A DNA stretch of 64,000 nt, taken from assembly GCF_034720595.1 (NCBI RefSeq), contig NZ_JAYESJ010000001.1, positions 1,886,001 through 1,950,000 of the forward strand, read 5' to 3'. Below, in pieces: positions 3,950 to 56,862 of this stretch (position 1 is the stretch's first letter; every line of letters begins with the position of its first letter). The position numbers and the translations under genes were made by a program. This stretch comes from Rhizobium sp. CC-YZS058 (GTDB taxonomy: Bacteria; Pseudomonadota; Alphaproteobacteria; Rhizobiales; Rhizobiaceae). The notes under the pieces are model-generated. The model was given only the letters and a program-made list of their open reading frames with translations. It had not been told where the DNA came from and did not search any database.

Positions 3950-5449
3950 TTACTCGGCGCTGTCCTCGGCAGCTGCCTTCTTCTTGGAGGCTGCCTTCTT
4001 CTTCGGCGCGGCAGCCTCTTCGGCCTGAGCGCCTTCAGCGGCATCGGCCGTCTCGGCCTTGGCGGCCTTCTTCTTCGGAGCAGCCTTCTTGGCAGGCTTC
4101 TCGGCGCTGTCGTCCTCGTCGTCGGCCATCAGCTCGTCCTTGCTGACGGTCTTGTCGGTGACCGAGACTTCGCCGAGCAGGTGGTCGACGACCTTTTCTT
4201 CAAACAACGGCGCGCGCAGCGATGCGGCGGCACCCGGGGTCTTCTGGAAATAGTCGATGATCTGCTTTTCCTGGCCGGGGAACTGGCGCAGCTGCTGGAA
4301 CAGCGAGCGCTGCATTTCCTCGTCGCTGACCGTCACGCCAGCCTTCTCGCCGATCTCGGAGAGAACCAGGCCGAGGCGAACGCGGCGTTCGGCGAGCTTG
4401 CGATACTCGGCGCGCGCCTCTTCTTCCGTCGTGTCTTCGTCGGCAAAGGTCTTGCCGGCCTGTTCGAGGTCGGTGTTGATCTGGCGCCAGATATTGTCGA
4501 ACTCGGCATCGACGAGGCCCTGCGGCGTGTCGAACTGGTAGAGTTCGTCGAGCTGGTCGAGAAGCTGACGCTTGACCTTCTGGCGGGTCATCGAGCCGTA
4601 CTGGCTTTCGATCTGGCCGCGCACGACTTCCTTCAGCTTGTCGGCCGATTCGAGGCCGAGCTTGGTGGCGAGCTCGTCGTTGATCTCGACCTCGGCCGGG
4701 GTTGCGACGGCCTTGACCTTGATGTCGAAGGTCGCGTCCTTGCCCGCCAGATTGGCAGCCGGGTATTCGGCCGGGAAGGTCACCGTGATCACCTTCTCGT
4801 CGCCCGCCTTGGCGCCGACCAGCTGCTCTTCGAAGCCGGGGATGAAGCGGTTGGAGCCGAGAACCAGTTCGGCGTCCTCGTCCTTGCCGCCATCGAAGGG
4901 CTCGCCGTCGAGCTTGCCGAGATAGTCGATCGTGACGCGGTCGCCGTTTTCGGCAGCCCCGTCCTTGTCGCTATACGTGCGGGCGCTTTCGGCGATCTTG
5001 AGGATCTGCTCGGTCACTTCCTCGTCGGCGATGTCGACGACTTCGCGGGTGACCTTGATGCCGCTGACGTCCTTCAGTTCGAAGGTCGGAATGACTTCAT
5101 AAGCGAGCGTGAATTCGAAATCGGCTTCGGCGCTCAGGATCTTCTCGGCCTCGGCCTGATCCTCGGTCATGGCGATGTCCGGCTGGGTCGCCGACTTTTC
5201 GCCGCGCTCCTGCAGGATTTCGACCGGCTTGTCGCGCACCAGCTCGTTGACGAGCTCGGCCATGATCGACTTGCCATAGACCTTCTTGAGGTGAGCGACC
5301 GGCACCTTGCCCGGGCGGAAACCGTTGATGCGGACGCGATCCTTGGTTTCGGCGAGACGCTCGTTCATCCGCGCCTCCATGTCCTTGGCCGGGATCACGA
5401 CCTTCAATTCGCGCTTCAGCCCGTCCGCGAGCGTTTCGATAACCTGCAT
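3950..5449 (-). CDS. tig: Trigger factor, ribosome-associated chaperone and prolyl isomerase
   Basis: Trigger factor binds nascent chains at the ribosome exit tunnel. The 499-residue product shows the ribosome-binding N-terminal domain with the signature GFRPGKVP, the FKBP-type isomerase domain ([20 protein letters not shown] to about residue 250), and the helical C-terminal chaperone domain. The last 60 or so residues are a low-complexity Ala/Lys tail with repeated KKKAA blocks, longer than in enteric trigger factors. ATG 5449 is chosen over a TTG two codons upstream because GAAGG lies seven bases before it and MQVIETL is the usual start. tRNA-Leu lies upstream on the same strand. Confidence 0.95.
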
Positions 5450-5693
5450 GTTCAAACCTTCATTTCACGTTGCCGGGGCGCCGTCCGCGGACGGGCCGAT
5501 CCATGTGCCGGGAGTGGCTTTACTGAAACCGAGCGCCGTTTTGCAAGCAAAATGGCGAAAAGACCGATGTTCTGGGCAGAAACTTGCGCCGGCTCCTCTC
5601 CGTCTGCAGCTTCCGCGCGGCGCCTCCGGTCAGGTCTGGCACGGCGCTTCGCCTGTGCCATATGCCGGGCCGGCGCGCCCCTTGATCCTCGCC

Positions 5694-5778
<85 letters not shown>

Positions 5779-6069
5779 GGGACTGCGGCCCTTCGAAAAG
5801 GCCGTCCCAGGCGCGGCGTCTCTATAGCACCGACAGCGCCGCATTCAAGCAGAATCGGGTTCCGCAACGGCACGCACCAGGCATGCGGGCGCCTTGGGCC
5901 CTTGTGTCCCCGGTCGGCCGGCGCCATTTCCAGGCTGTGCACATGCTTGCGCCCCGCGACTGTTTCTTGGGCAGACCGCCCGTTCGTCTCGTCGAGCCAT
6001 GCATATCCGGCATGGGTGCCATTCGCAGCGAGCGCTGGCGGAACGAAAACCACTCTCCTATCTTATAGA

Positions 6070-6199
6070 CATATCGAGACGGCGCCCTCCTCCTCCCAAC
6101 GCCGCTCGATTGGGATCGACGACACCTCCTCCTCCCGGTCGTCGGTCAGTTTAGCAACGCTCGCCGGATCCTCCTCCCCCGGCGAGCGTTGTCTGTTTT
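6070..6199 (+). ncRNA. Cuckoo/alpha-r14-type sRNA with three anti-Shine-Dalgarno hairpin loops
   Basis: Three consecutive hairpins each expose the motif CCTCCTCCC. Hairpin 1 spans 6075-6108 (motif 6086-6097, one bulged A). Hairpin 2 spans 6114-6147 with a 10-pair stem. Hairpin 3 is a 13-pair stem (6155-6167 with 6179-6191) whose loop at 6168-6178 carries the motif, followed by TCTGTTTT, so it also terminates the transcript on the plus strand. This matches the alphaproteobacterial cuckoo RNAs (alpha-r14 of rhizobia, CcsR of Rhodobacter). The motif is complementary to the ribosome binding site. CcsR RNAs are known to be linked to a DUF1127 gene, and two such genes follow here. The 5' end is inferred from a TATCTT -10-like element at 6059. 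Confidence 0.82.
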
Positions 6200-6320
6200 G
6201 GGGGTTACTTCGAACATCGTCGCCGTGCTTAACGCTTGCCACCTGCGGGCCGCGTCGCGCTTTCGGTCCATCGGTCGCTCCGCTTCCCCGTCGATTCTGC
6301 TGACCGAGAGATCTGCGGAC

Positions 6321-6334
6321 TGTGCATAGGTGCA
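6321..6334. promoter_or_regulatory. Possible LysR-type operator upstream of first DUF1127 gene
   Basis: TGTGCA followed four bases later by TGCA lies about 115 bases before the ATG at 6438. A related, more symmetrical site precedes the second DUF1127 gene. Known: the LysR regulator VtlR/LsrB activates DUF1127 genes in Brucella. That this is such a site is inference. No other feature was seen in 6200-6437. Confidence 0.3.
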
Positions 6335-6437
6335 GTGCGGAATCCCGTCTGGAGAAGAGGCCTTCAAGAGCTTACATTCCAGCCATCGACGAAGGCCGGT
6401 TTGGATTGCCGGCACCCCTGACGGAAAGGAACCGGAC

Positions 6438-6581
6438 ATGAACATCACCCGCTCTCTCACCTCCTGGCGCAAGTATCGGCAGACCGTGGACGAACTGAGC
6501 CGCATGAGCGACCGCGAGCTGAGCGACCTCGGCATCGGCCGCTCGGAAATCCGCAGCGTCGCCCGCCGCGCCTCTCGCTAA
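6438..6581 (+). CDS. DUF1127 small protein (47 aa)
   Basis: A 47-residue basic protein made of two short helices with the DUF1127 core WRKYRQTVDELSRMSDRELSDLGIGRSEI. Family members of this size are common in rhizobia, Brucella and Rhodobacter; in Rhodobacter one (CcaF1) binds RNA and affects sRNA processing, and others have been tied to phosphate and carbon physiology. The gene has a clear ribosome binding site (GGAAAGGA), its own strong terminator, and sits just downstream of the three-hairpin sRNA. It is a paralogue of the gene at 6897. A molecular function cannot be read from sequence. Confidence 0.9.
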   Translation: MNITRSLTSWRKYRQTVDELSRMSDRELSDLGIGRSEIRSVARRASR

Positions 6582-6621
6582 GGATCGGCGGTCGACCGGC
6601 CGCTGCCGGATCTGAGTTTTG

Positions 6622-6658
6622 AAACGCCCCGCTGCGCCTGCAGCGGGGCGTTTGTGTG
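6622..6658 (+). terminator. Intrinsic terminator after first DUF1127 gene
   Basis: A 14-pair GC-rich stem (6622-6635 with 6640-6653) with loop GCCT is followed by T-rich sequence, about 40 bases after the stop. Confidence 0.85.
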
Positions 6659-6757
6659 TGCGGGCCTCGCGCACCCGCTCTGCTCGGACGGCGTGTCTGA
6701 AGGAGCCCTTGGGACGAACGGTCGGATTTTGGGCAAATGCGACGCTTGCGTGGTTCC

Positions 6758-6775
6758 TGTGCAATGACCTGCACA
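6758..6775. promoter_or_regulatory. Palindromic TGTGCA-N6-TGCACA site upstream of second DUF1127 gene
   Basis: A perfect six-base inverted repeat separated by six bases, 122 bases before the ATG at 6897. The spacing suits a dimeric regulator such as a LysR-type protein, but no regulator is named by the sequence. The rest of 6659-6896 shows nothing else clear. Confidence 0.4.
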
Positions 6776-6896
6776 AACGCATGGCAGTCGCACATTTTTT
6801 GCACTGCAGCTTTCCCGATAACAGGCGTAGAACAACGCTCAAGGAACCGGCCCGGTGGGGTGCGGTTCGAACCGTGCAAGAACAAGGACAACCGAC

Positions 6897-7040
6897 ATGA
6901 ATCCGATCCGTATCGCCCGCAACTGGATGAACTATCGCCGCACCGTTTCCGAACTCGGCAGCCTGTCGAACCAGGCCCTGTCCGACATCGGCATCACCCG
7001 GTTCGACATCCGCAACATCGCAGCGCGCTCCTTCCGCTAA
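6897..7040 (+). CDS. DUF1127 small protein (47 aa), second copy
   Basis: A 47-residue DUF1127 protein, MNPIRIARNWMNYRR onward, aligning without gaps to the protein at 6438 (shared pattern WxxYRxTVxELxxxSxxxLSDxGIxRxxIRxxAxRxxR). The upstream AAGGACAACCGAC supplies a ribosome binding site. It has its own palindromic upstream site and its own terminator, so the two copies are separate transcription units. The duplication may allow different control of the same activity; that is inference. Confidence 0.9.
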   Translation: MNPIRIARNWMNYRRTVSELGSLSNQALSDIGITRFDIRNIAARSFR

Positions 7041-7067
7041 AGCGCAGCAGCCTCTGTTGAAACGACC

Positions 7068-7096
7068 AACGGCGCCCACGAGGCGCCGTTTTTTAT
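7068..7096 (+). terminator. Intrinsic terminator after second DUF1127 gene
   Basis: A nine-pair stem AACGGCGCC/GGCGCCGTT (7068-7076 with 7082-7090) with a five-base loop and a run of six or more T residues. Confidence 0.88.
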
Positions 7097-7139
7097 TGTC
7101 CGGATGATGAGAATGAGGGGGCGGAGCCGGGGCTCGACC

Positions 7140-8420
7140 CTACTCCGCGTCGACCTTCGAGACCAGGATCTTGTCGATTCGCCGCGCATCCATGTCGATG
7201 ACCTCGAAGCGGTAGCCATAGGCTTCCGTCACGTCACCCTCTTCCGGCGTCTTGCGGAGTTCCTGCACCAGGAACCCGGCGATGGTCTCGTAATTGCCGT
7301 CGGAATCGATTTCCTCCAGCCCGATGGTGAAGTGGATCTCGTCGATCGGGGTTCGCCCGTCGACCAGGAAGCTGCCGTCTTCCCGCTGGCGGATCAGCGC
7401 ATGTTCGAGATCGTCATAGTTCGACGGCAGCACGCCGACGATCGCCTCGAGAATATCGGCGATGGTGATGATGCCCTCGATGCTTCCATATTCGTCGACG
7501 ATCATCGCCATGTTGATGCGTGACGACTTGAACGCCTCCAGCGCCTTCAGGCAGGACGCCGTCTCCGGCAGCGTATGCAGTTCCTTCACGAAACTGCGGA
7601 TGTCGAAGGCGCCCGAATTGGCGTTGAGCACTTCCTTGACCAGAACTGCGCCCAGAACCTCGCCGCTCGCCGTGTCCATGACAGGATAGCGTGAGTGCGA
7701 GGTTTCCTTGACCTTTTCCTGCACGGTCTCCAGCGTGTCATGCACCTCGAAGAAGCTGACCTCGGTGCGGTGGGTCATGATCGACTTCACATTGCGATCG
7801 CCGAGCCTGATGATCCGCCGCAGCATCTCGTGCTCGGATTTTTCGATTGCGCCGCTTTCGACGCCTTCGGCCATGATCGCCTGCACCTCTTCTTCGGTCA
7901 CCGCATCCTTGTTGCGGGACACGCCGAAGATGCGCATGACGAGGCTGGCGGAGCCTTCGAAGAGATAGACGACCGGCGCCACGATCTTCGACAGGAGCAG
8001 CATCGGCCGCGCCACGAACATGGCAATGGCTTCGGAATTGGTCAGCGCGAACTGCTTGGGGATCAACTCGCCGATGACGACGGAGAGATAGGTGATCAGG
8101 GAGACGACCAGCGCCACGGCGACGGTGCTGCCGTAAGGGGCGATCCACGGGATTTCGTTGAGAATGGGCGCCAGCTTGTCGGCGATGGTCGCACCGCCAT
8201 AGGCGCCGGCCAGCGTACCGACCAGCGTGATGCCGACCTGAACGGTGGAAAGAAATTTGCCGGGATCTTCCGCAAGATTGAGCGCCAGTTCGGCGCGGGC
8301 ATTCCCCTGCTTGGCCATCTGCCGCAGCAAGGGGCGGCTGGCAGAGACGATCGCCATTTCCGACATGGCGAAGAAGGCATTGATCAGCAGAAGAACGAAG
8401 ATAACGATCAGTTCGGACAT
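7140..8420 (-). CDS. CNNM/CBS/CorC_HlyC-domain membrane protein (UPF0053, hemolysin-like)
   Basis: A 426-residue inner-membrane protein. Residues 1 to about 200 form a CNNM transmembrane domain with several hydrophobic helices (MSELIVIFVLLLINAFFAMSE at the start). A cytoplasmic CBS pair follows (VKSIMTHRTEVSFFEV, then MAMIVDEYGSIEGIITIADILE), and then a C-terminal CorC_HlyC transporter-associated domain. CNNM proteins act in magnesium or cobalt efflux or homeostasis; the older name hemolysin is a family label, not evidence of toxin activity. It has no close operon partner. Confidence 0.9.
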   Translation of the reverse strand: MSELIVIFVLLLINAFFAMSEMAIVSASRPLLRQMAKQGNARAELALNLAEDPGKFLSTVQVGITLVGTLAGAYGGATIADKLAPILNEIPWIAPYGSTVAVALVVSLITYLSVVIGELIPKQFALTNSEAIAMFVARPMLLLSKIVAPVVYLFEGSASLVMRIFGVSRNKDAVTEEEVQAIMAEGVESGAIEKSEHEMLRRIIRLGDRNVKSIMTHRTEVSFFEVHDTLETVQEKVKETSHSRYPVMDTASGEVLGAVLVKEVLNANSGAFDIRSFVKELHTLPETASCLKALEAFKSSRINMAMIVDEYGSIEGIITIADILEAIVGVLPSNYDDLEHALIRQREDGSFLVDGRTPIDEIHFTIGLEEIDSDGNYETIAGFLVQELRKTPEEGDVTEAYGYRFEVIDMDARRIDKILVSKVDAE

Positions 8421-56516: not shown

Positions 56517-56705
56517 CGTCCTCTCCTCGTCAGGGCTGTCGCATCAGCCCTGCTCTGACGACCTCCCTAGCCGATTAGCGGCGCCTGGCAAAGGTCGCAC
56601 GTCCGAGGGTGGAGCGGCAGGATGCGACAAGCGACGGAAATCTTTCCCGGCGCGACATTTTCTCCTTGCCAAGCCCGCCCTATCCTTCTTATCTGAGCCC
56701 GATCT

Positions 56706-56862
56706 TGTTGGGAGAATCCGGCCGTCGCGCCGGTGCCGAAGGAGCAACCGCCCCGGAAACTCTCAGGCCAAAGGACCAGCAGGATGCCGGCAGGACTCTG
56801 GAGAGAAGCATTCCGCTCGCCGAAGGGATAACAATCTCAGGCACAGGAACAGAGGGGGCTCA
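56706..56862 (+). promoter_or_regulatory. Tandem glycine riboswitch of the gcv operon
   Basis: Two glycine aptamers lie in line. The first (about 56709-56805) contains the conserved GCCGAAGGAGCAACC and GAAACTCTCAGGC and ends in GGACTCTGGAGAG. The second (about 56806-56860) contains GCCGAAGGGATAAC and ATCTCAGGCACAGGAACAG. This is the classic form that switches on glycine cleavage when glycine is plentiful; it ends about 65 bases before gcvT. Confidence 0.92.

What the first reader, a model, noticed from the sequence alone, without database searches (positions are those of the whole stretch)
6070..6199. Three-loop anti-Shine-Dalgarno sRNA (cuckoo/alpha-r14 type) next to two DUF1127 genes
Seen directly: three hairpins in line, each with CCTCCTCCC in the loop, and the last one doubling as a terminator. 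Known: such cuckoo RNAs occur in alphaproteobacteria, and in Rhodobacter the CcsR RNAs are processed from a transcript that also encodes a DUF1127 protein. Here the RNA has its own terminator and lies upstream of two separate DUF1127 genes, so the linkage exists with a different order and without cotranscription. That suggests a functional pairing rather than operon chance.
Basis: partly seen in the sequence, partly recalled or inferred. Interest (0 to 1): 0.7.

Follow-up and report, generated by a model that had tools for sequence, protein, structure and literature searches.

The report
NfeR1-type sRNA with co-controlled DUF1127 gene
This is a known kind of bacterial small RNA that can block the translation start of messenger RNAs, and here it sits beside a small-protein gene that appears to be switched on by the same regulator, which suggests the two work together.

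Summary
Window 6069-6194 (+) matches Rfam ar14 (RF02344), 96.2 bits against a threshold of 58.8: three hairpins, each with an anti-Shine-Dalgarno loop. Two 47-aa DUF1127 genes follow (6438-6581, 6897-7040).

Synteny (tig, ar14, DUF1127, DUF1127) and promoter make it the likely ortholog of Sinorhizobium NfeR1: the published LsrB site TGCA-N6-GCAT lies at 6000-6013, about the published distance from the predicted start. NfeR1's NtrC site was not found.

ar14-DUF1127 linkage is already published as 'CIN1 locus', so the pairing is not new. Added here: (1) DUF1127 lies beside tig in at least 48 of 61 sampled genera, nearly always with ar14; (2) DUF1127 gene 1 carries the same LsrB-type box (one mismatch here; at most one in 76 of 77 named relatives; gene 2 in 3 of 75, chance level); (3) 35 of those 48 have DUF1127 first, with ar14 usually right behind it, whereas ar14-first is confined to one clade. 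Co-transcription appears to have been replaced by co-regulation.

Best reading: LsrB-activated trans-acting sRNA plus a co-activated DUF1127 protein. Expression, LsrB binding here and protein-RNA contact are untested.

The parts
6069..6194 (+). ar14 / cuckoo sRNA, likely ortholog of NfeR1: hairpins 6073-6110, 6114-6147, 6152-6195, each loop with CCTCCTCC(C); hairpin 3 probably serves as terminator
   Evidence: RF02344 96.2 bits, GA 58.8; fold z -6.5; motif triple 0 in 100 shuffles
6000..6013 (+). LsrB-type box TGCATATCCGGCAT upstream of the sRNA (extended match 6000-6019)
   Evidence: Exact match to TGCA-N6-GCAT (PMC10746234); the one exact match of TGCANNNNNNGCATRGGTGC in the genome (the extension was taken from nfeR1-type promoters, this one included); coordinates
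6058..6063 (+). candidate -10 CTATCT (weak -35 GCTGGCG at 6034-6040, spacing 17) of the sRNA promoter
   Evidence: Layout as CTTAGAC-N17-CTATAT of nfeR1 (PMC10746234); coordinates; inference. The generic sigma-70 scan found no promoter in 5780-7140
6314..6333 (+). LsrB-type box TGCGGACTGTGCATAGGTGC upstream of DUF1127 gene 1 (one mismatch)
   Evidence: conserved in relatives
6438..6581 (+). DUF1127 gene 1, 47 aa
   Evidence: PF06568 59.0 bits; start and stop checked
6622..6653 (+). hairpin after DUF1127 gene 1 (terminator; possibly a decayed third hairpin of a lost second ar14)
   Evidence: 14-bp perfect stem; terminator scan 6634-6651; weak ar14-model match at window 6546-6655, 22.2 bits
6897..7040 (+). 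DUF1127 gene 2, 47 aa, without LsrB-type box
   Evidence: PF06568 49.7 bits; best match to the extended box has 4 mismatches; start and stop checked
7068..7090 (+). terminator of DUF1127 gene 2
3953..5455 (-). tig, trigger factor; the neighbour used as synteny anchor
   Evidence: Trigger_N, Trigger_C and FKBP_C over cut-off; relatives
5694..5778 (-). tRNA-Leu between tig and the sRNA
   Evidence: ARAGORN; RF00005 at 5697-5778

Best explanation
The locus encodes the NfeR1 ortholog of this Rhizobium-like genome: a ~125-nt trans-acting sRNA with three redundant anti-Shine-Dalgarno loops that bind purine-rich ribosome-binding sites and stop translation. It is transcribed from its own promoter, activated by the LysR regulator LsrB at the box at 6000-6013, and ends at hairpin 3. 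DUF1127 gene 1 is a separate transcription unit activated by the same regulator from its own box at 6314, so sRNA and small protein rise together. In most related genera examined the same two parts form one box-DUF1127-ar14 unit. The best-supported history is a doubled DUF1127-ar14 unit that lost its leading DUF1127 gene in this lineage, so that shared promoter control replaced a shared transcript. Shown here: family match, synteny, shared box, distribution of the two orders. Known for orthologs from papers: aSD silencing, LsrB/VtlR activation. Inferred: activity and LsrB binding in this strain, the history, and that the DUF1127 protein acts on the RNA as CcaF1 does on CcsR.
For: Rfam match and fold. 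Synteny: of 80 named tig loci, 77 carry DUF1127 next to tig and 69 of these show motif-defined ar14 before it; the covariance model, run on 30 of the 80 including all 8 motif-negative ones, adds L083, L097, L101. S. meliloti 4H41 (L073) has ar14-ar14-DUF1127-DUF1127, and its DUF-proximal ar14 has the exact box and CCTAGCA-N17-CTATAT. In S. meliloti 1021 smrC14/SmelC397 (NfeR1) shares an intergenic region with sm7' beside SMc02051 (PMC2573895, PMC2873474, PMC7143759; passages). Box, 80 named loci, 150 nt upstream: gene 1 exact 61/77, at most one mismatch 76/77 (mononucleotide shuffles 0.10 and 4.2); DUF-proximal ar14 21/56 and 46/56 (0.10, 2.85), 41 of the 46 at -74 to -68; gene 2 0/75 and 3/75 (0.05, 3.85). 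48 genera, dinucleotide shuffles: head DUF1127 16/35 and 33/35 (0.35, 4.8); gene 1 after ar14 6/13 and 12/13; adjacent ar14 4/13 and 12/13; ar14 downstream of DUF1127 0/52 and 3/52 (0, 1.65). Own genome: two of seven one-mismatch extended boxes precede DUF1127 genes (P about 7e-7 with a 250-nt limit set afterwards). A LysR gene lies just upstream of tandem AbcR-type RNAs, the place of lsrB in S. meliloti. VtlR binds the promoter of atu1667, whose Brucella orthologs are DUF1127 proteins (PMC7486931, PMC12595884); LsrB binds and activates nfeR1.
Against: No transcript or protein data for this strain. The box at gene 1 has one mismatch here, the -35 of the sRNA is poor, and the generic promoter scan found nothing. 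The NtrC site of nfeR1 (TGC-N11-GCA) is absent at 5801-6070. Other, non-adjacent ar14 also show more near-matches to the short motif than shuffles (20/62 with at most one mismatch, expected 3.7, mostly near -140), and later DUF1127 genes of the 48 genera have 4/25 exact (expected 0.18), so the short motif is not perfectly specific. A duplex test does not single out ntrB as target here (24% of 33 window genes pair as well with the loop). NCBIfam gives the LysR gene no family over its cut-off among the 25 best of 55 shown. Four of five ar14 matches in this genome are not near DUF1127. RNA binding by DUF1127 is contested: YjiS shows none, and A. tumefaciens DUF1127 proteins act through PhoR (PMC12501420).
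Confidence: 0.7

Rival explanations
1. Co-regulation without molecular contact: sRNA and DUF1127 protein are two independent outputs of LsrB. The RNA silences transporter and metabolic mRNAs while the protein binds sensor kinases such as PhoR. They stay neighbours because they descend from one operon. (This differs from the best reading only in the last, inferred step.)
For: A. tumefaciens DUF1127 proteins bind PhoR and heterologous ones complement (PMC12501420, passages); Salmonella YjiS shows no RNA binding (same passages). Four of five ar14 matches and five of seven DUF1127 matches in this genome are not linked to each other.
Against: In R. sphaeroides CcaF1 matures its CcsR RNAs and binds RNA (PMC10253847, passages). 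DUF1127 with ar14 stays beside tig in most of the 61 genera through rearrangement.
Confidence: 0.4
2. The linkage is only inherited position beside tig with no selection for it: the order changed by neutral duplication and loss, and the shared boxes are duplication leftovers.
For: Architectures look like tandem duplication with loss; ar14-first is confined to one 17-genus clade of the tig tree.
Against: The box is within one mismatch at 76 of 77 gene-1 promoters while gene 2 next door is at chance. DUF1127-first linkage also occurs in four other families of the order (G067, G070, G072, G075; only G075's RNAs are over the Rfam cut-off), so it is probably older than this family.
Confidence: 0.2
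3. The sRNA is a silent copy: of six NfeR1-type loci in S. meliloti only one was reliably detected, so this copy might be inactive.
For: Review statement on the S. meliloti copies (PMC7143759, passage); weak -35 and missing NtrC site here.
Against: This is the syntenic counterpart of the expressed copy, with an exact LsrB box and intact structure.
Confidence: 0.07

Closest known systems
NfeR1 (SmelC397/smrC14) of Sinorhizobium meliloti, founding member of alpha-r14 (RF02344)
   Same: Three hairpins with aSD loops, ~123 nt, LsrB box about 70 nt upstream of the predicted start, same block beside tig
   Different: The second, upstream ar14 copy of S. meliloti is absent here; NtrC site not found; different -35; expression here untested
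CIN1 locus / ccaF1-CcsR1-4 of Rhodobacter sphaeroides
   Same: Small DUF1127 gene next to aSD-loop RNAs
   Different: There DUF1127 comes first, is co-transcribed with four RNAs and has an RpoHI/RpoHII promoter (PMC10253847); R. sphaeroides RS0680a is described with two stem loops (PMC3927594; that RS0680a is CcsR is recalled). Here the RNA is first, has three hairpins and its own terminator, and both parts carry LsrB-type boxes. RF02791 (CcsR1) scores 30.1 bits here, below its threshold of 65.3
VtlR/LsrB regulon: atu1667 and AbcR1 of A. tumefaciens; three DUF1127 genes and AbcR2 of Brucella
   Same: LsrB/VtlR activation of DUF1127 genes together with an aSD-type sRNA
   Different: There the named sRNA is AbcR, encoded beside vtlR, and it interacts with Hfq in S. 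meliloti; here sRNA and DUF1127 are neighbours and NfeR1 is called Hfq-independent

Membership tests
ar14 / cuckoo RNA (RF02344) | Covariance-model score over the curated threshold, full length | tested here: met
   96.2 vs 58.8 bits, positions 1-123
ar14 / cuckoo RNA (RF02344) | Three hairpins with CCUCCUCCC unpaired in each loop | tested here: met
   Fold, Rfam alignment; loop columns nearly all invariant in an alignment of 32 members
ar14 / cuckoo RNA (RF02344) | Expressed as a discrete ~115-125-nt transcript | not testable with these tools
   No expression data
NfeR1 (ortholog) | Same genomic position as in Sinorhizobium | tested here: met
   tig-linked block in S. meliloti 4H41 and other Ensifer/Sinorhizobium loci. 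That the 4H41 DUF-proximal copy is NfeR1 is inferred from its promoter and from the 1021 tables
NfeR1 (ortholog) | LsrB box TGCA-N6-GCAT at about -72 to -60 | tested here: met
   6000-6013, about 70 nt before the predicted start; start not mapped
NfeR1 (ortholog) | NtrC site TGC-N11-GCA at -116 to -101 | tested here: not met
   None at 5801-6070. The paper suggests this promoter feature is restricted to plant symbionts, so I do not treat it as defining the RNA
NfeR1 (ortholog) | Silences ntrB through the aSD loops | tested here: inconclusive
   Duplex energy of ntrB not exceptional: 24% of 33 window genes as low
CIN1 locus (DUF1127 + CcsR-like RNA) | DUF1127 gene adjacent to cuckoo RNA | tested here: met
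   243 nt between the Rfam match end (6194) and gene 1 (6438); definition known only from PMC10253847's sentence
ccaF1-CcsR operon type | RNA co-transcribed downstream of the DUF1127 gene | tested here: not met
   Order reversed, terminator-like hairpin and a separate box between; transcript not measured
DUF1127 (PF06568) | Pfam score over cut-off | tested here: met
   59.0 and 49.7 vs 23.3 bits; NCBIfam has no match for either
LsrB-activated promoter | LsrB binds and activates | not testable with these tools
   Only the box was tested here; binding is reported for nfeR1 and for atu1667

The most novel reading that the evidence does not exclude
NfeR1 is the descendant of a DUF1127-ar14 operon whose leading protein gene was lost. 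LsrB keeps the separated sRNA and its DUF1127 partner co-expressed through twin boxes, and the DUF1127 protein is the missing chaperone or maturation factor of this Hfq-independent sRNA.
Probability: 0.3. Interest if true: 0.72.

Novelty: new member of a known kind. Interest (0 to 1): 0.45.

Why it matters
PMC10746234 leaves the RNA chaperone of NfeR1, 'if any', as an open question (passage), and PMC12501420 calls the RNA-versus-protein binding of DUF1127 an intriguing puzzle (passage). A DUF1127 gene beside nfeR1 with the same LsrB-type box, conserved across genera, makes both directly testable in S. meliloti. The order change also suggests how a protein-sRNA operon can split while keeping common control.

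Tried and rejected
Rejected: chance occurrence of the loops. CcsR1, ar7 and 6C families: all below threshold. DUF1127 mRNAs as sRNA targets: loop pairing with the start regions of genes 1 and 2 unremarkable (42% and 76% of 33 window genes as low). An ntrB target in this genome: not supported by duplex energy, though this cannot exclude real pairing.

Errors corrected: one search translated both DUF1127 genes out of frame (corrected). The alignment mixed strands (redone). The model built lacks hairpin 1, probably because the stems align poorly, so it served only to find copies. The first tig tree used antisense translations for many genes; one search replaces it. Searches list 150 rows each, so counts are lower bounds. 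The tig tree used 53 of 61 genomes; I left out G001, G005, G006, G026, G031, G043, G044 and G056. One search ran the model on 13 of the 48 tig loci, on 22 and on 30 of the 80 named loci; for the others ar14 rests on the loop motif.

Not read: Reinkensmeier and Giegerich 2015 (cuckoo RNA) and Grutzner 2021 are not held; Robledo 2017 and del Val 2012 were not looked up. They may already describe parts of this context. Of the papers cited I saw passages, plus one whole section of PMC3927594. A search for papers with at least three of atu1667, DUF1127, trigger factor, NfeR1, LsrB found none; nine papers hold two of LsrB, DUF1127, VtlR, NfeR1, and I saw passages of seven of them.

Full report
What is there. 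Window 6069-6194 (+) is a full-length match to Rfam ar14, 96.2 bits. The strand folds into three hairpins with the aSD motif in each loop, z -6.5, and the triple motif occurs in none of 100 shuffles of the window. Downstream lie two 47-aa DUF1127 ORFs, 6438-6581 and 6897-7040, each followed by a hairpin (6622-6653 and 7068-7090). Upstream lie a tRNA-Leu and the trigger-factor gene tig, both on the other strand. The genome holds five ar14 matches, three over threshold, and seven DUF1127 matches, six over cut-off; only this ar14 is near DUF1127.

Linkage beyond this genome. In 61 genomes of the family, one per genus, 90 of the 150 listed ar14 matches lie within 1 kb of a listed DUF1127 match, 89 on the same strand; for 69 the nearest DUF1127 is upstream, for 20 downstream, and one is on the opposite strand; 60 are unlinked (both lists are cut at 150 rows). 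Chance would give well under 1% (my estimate from about five 2-kb neighbourhoods per 4.5 Mb). This agrees with the published 'CIN1 locus': PMC10253847 (passages) credits Reinkensmeier and Giegerich 2015 for it; I could not read that paper.

One syntenic locus, two orders. tig was found in 61 of 61 genomes. A DUF1127 gene lies beside tig, on the opposite strand, in 46 of 61 within 6 kb, and in two more (G018, G046) at 10.6 and 13.8 kb. ar14 accompanies it in 46 of these 48 by motif or model; G052 has only a match cut off by the contig end, and G017 has none. Thirteen of the 48 have ar14 first and 35 have DUF1127 first. In the 31 DUF1127-first loci with motif-defined ar14, the first loop starts 19-33 nt after the preceding DUF1127 stop codon in 25, which leaves little room for a promoter between; one inside the coding sequence is not excluded. 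A tig tree of 53 genomes, rooted on five genera without the block, puts all 13 ar14-first genera in one supported clade of 17 (99/98). DUF1127-first G012, G013, G046 and G017 also lie in it. Order needs two changes without G017, three with it. So ar14-first is a local, derived state, though not strictly a single event. G013 and G046 have DUF1127-ar14-DUF1127-DUF1127; G019 and G024 are interleaved.

Outside the family I looked at 39 genomes of other families of the order. Twelve gave 17 ar14 matches, only the two of G075 over the Rfam cut-off. Eight of the 17, in G067, G070, G072 and G075, have DUF1127 just upstream; the other nine have no listed DUF1127 nearby. DUF1127 first is therefore the likely ancestral state. 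A degenerate ar14 remains after gene 1 in G029 (33.9 bits; sequence), and a very weak one in the window (22.2 bits); in a run over 22 named loci, matches after gene 1 were rare and no stronger than 13.8 bits. This fits a doubled DUF1127-ar14 unit that lost the first DUF1127 and let the second ar14 decay, but the relic evidence is thin.

Identity. In 80 named tig loci, 77 carry DUF1127 beside tig; motif scanning shows ar14 in 69 of them, and the model, run on 30 loci, adds L083, L097 and L101. L042, L046, L047, L051 and L081 carry the DUF1127 genes without ar14 by either method. L065, L071 and L112 have neither by my scan; L071 and L112 are cut short on that side. S. meliloti 4H41 (L073) has ar14-ar14-DUF1127-DUF1127; its DUF-proximal ar14 carries the exact LsrB box and CCTAGCA-N17-CTATAT. 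S. meliloti 1021 tables place smrC14/SmelC397 (NfeR1) and sm7'/SmelC398 in one intergenic region beside SMc02051 (PMC2573895, PMC2873474, PMC7143759; passages). The window RNA has the same box, TGCATATCCGGCAT at 6000-6013, about 70 nt before the predicted start, against -72 to -60 in the paper (PMC10746234, passages). The NtrC site is absent.

Shared control. I tested the published motif TGCA-N6-GCAT in 150 nt upstream of each element, giving exact matches and then matches with at most one mismatch. In the 80 named loci (mononucleotide shuffles in brackets): gene 1 61/77 and 76/77 (0.10, 4.2; L066 is the exception); DUF-proximal ar14 21/56 and 46/56 (0.10, 2.85), 41 of the 46 at -74 to -68; other ar14 2/62 and 20/62 (0.10, 3.7), mostly near -140, an excess I cannot explain; gene 2 0/75 and 3/75 (0.05, 3.85). 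In the 48 genera (dinucleotide shuffles): DUF1127 heading the block 16/35 and 33/35 (0.35, 4.8); gene 1 after ar14 6/13 and 12/13 (0.08, 1.5); adjacent ar14 4/13 and 12/13 (0.08, 1.8); farther ar14 0/6 and 1/6; later DUF1127 4/25 and 6/25 (0.18, 2.45), a class that includes gene-1-like genes of mixed loci; ar14 downstream of DUF1127 0/52 and 3/52 (0, 1.65), though 35/52 with at most two (19.1 expected). Species are related, so these are not independent trials; gene 2 and downstream ar14 are the internal controls.

In the own genome the extended box TGCANNNNNNGCATRGGTGC has one exact site, at this sRNA, and seven one-mismatch sites, two of them upstream of DUF1127 genes: gene 1 here and the gene at C1:1357043. 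With up to two mismatches there are 55 sites against 26 for the reversed pattern. Chance of two of seven is about 7e-7 with a 250-nt limit set afterwards; the extension was drawn from nfeR1-type promoters including this one, so the exact hit is by construction. A LysR-family gene lies directly before the tandem AbcR-type RNAs at C1:1158205 and 1158467, as lsrB does in S. meliloti (PMC8844928, passage); no NCBIfam family among the 25 best of 55 reaches its cut-off for it.

How it works. From papers (passages only): NfeR1 is Hfq-independent, silences ntrB and transporter mRNAs by occluding the ribosome-binding site through redundant aSD loops, and is activated by LsrB (PMC10746234). VtlR/LsrB binds the promoter of atu1667 in A. 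tumefaciens (PMC7486931), an ortholog of Brucella proteins that PMC12595884 lists as VtlR-activated DUF1127 proteins. CcaF1 with RNase E matures CcsR RNAs (PMC10253847). Against RNA binding: PhoR binding in A. tumefaciens and no RNA binding by YjiS (PMC12501420). The combination seen here, one LsrB-type box each at nfeR1 and at its DUF1127 neighbour, I did not find described in the searches listed, with the limits given under Tried and rejected.

Verdict. The RNA is a member of a known family and the gene pairing is known. New in this analysis, as far as I could check, are the identification as NfeR1 ortholog, the shared LsrB-type box with gene 1 but not gene 2, and the derived gene order with a plausible path. 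Target silencing of ntrB in this genome was not supported by simple pairing energies, and every functional step remains to be measured.

Noticed in passing
Own genome C1:1357043-1357153 (L007), outside the window: Another DUF1127 gene carries an nfeR1-like box (TGCGACTGCCGCATGGGTGC) 146 nt before the domain match, so the predicted LsrB set includes a third, unlinked member.
   Followed up: partly
window 6546-6655; G029 C668:98094-98174: Weak ar14-model matches right after DUF1127 gene 1 (22.2 bits; 33.9 bits), possibly relics of a second ar14; G029 still shows one CTCCTCCC hairpin by eye.
   Followed up: partly
window 56699-56862 (+): Tandem glycine riboswitch aptamers (61.2 and 40.5 bits).
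   Followed up: no
L042, L046, L047, L051, L081: Rhizobium-type tig loci that keep both DUF1127 genes and a gene-1 box within one mismatch but have no ar14 by motif or model.
   Followed up: partly
upstream of non-adjacent ar14 copies in the named tig loci (L042-L121): 20 of 62 have a near-match to TGCA-N6-GCAT, mostly near -140 rather than -70, against 3.7 expected; unexplained.
   Followed up: no
L218 (G070): A DUF1127 gene followed by eight CTCCTCCC-type loops in the stretch printed, a longer cuckoo array than usual.
   Followed up: no
L214 (G077): An ORF that looks DUF1127-like by eye precedes a sub-threshold ar14 match, although PF06568 did not list it.
   Followed up: no
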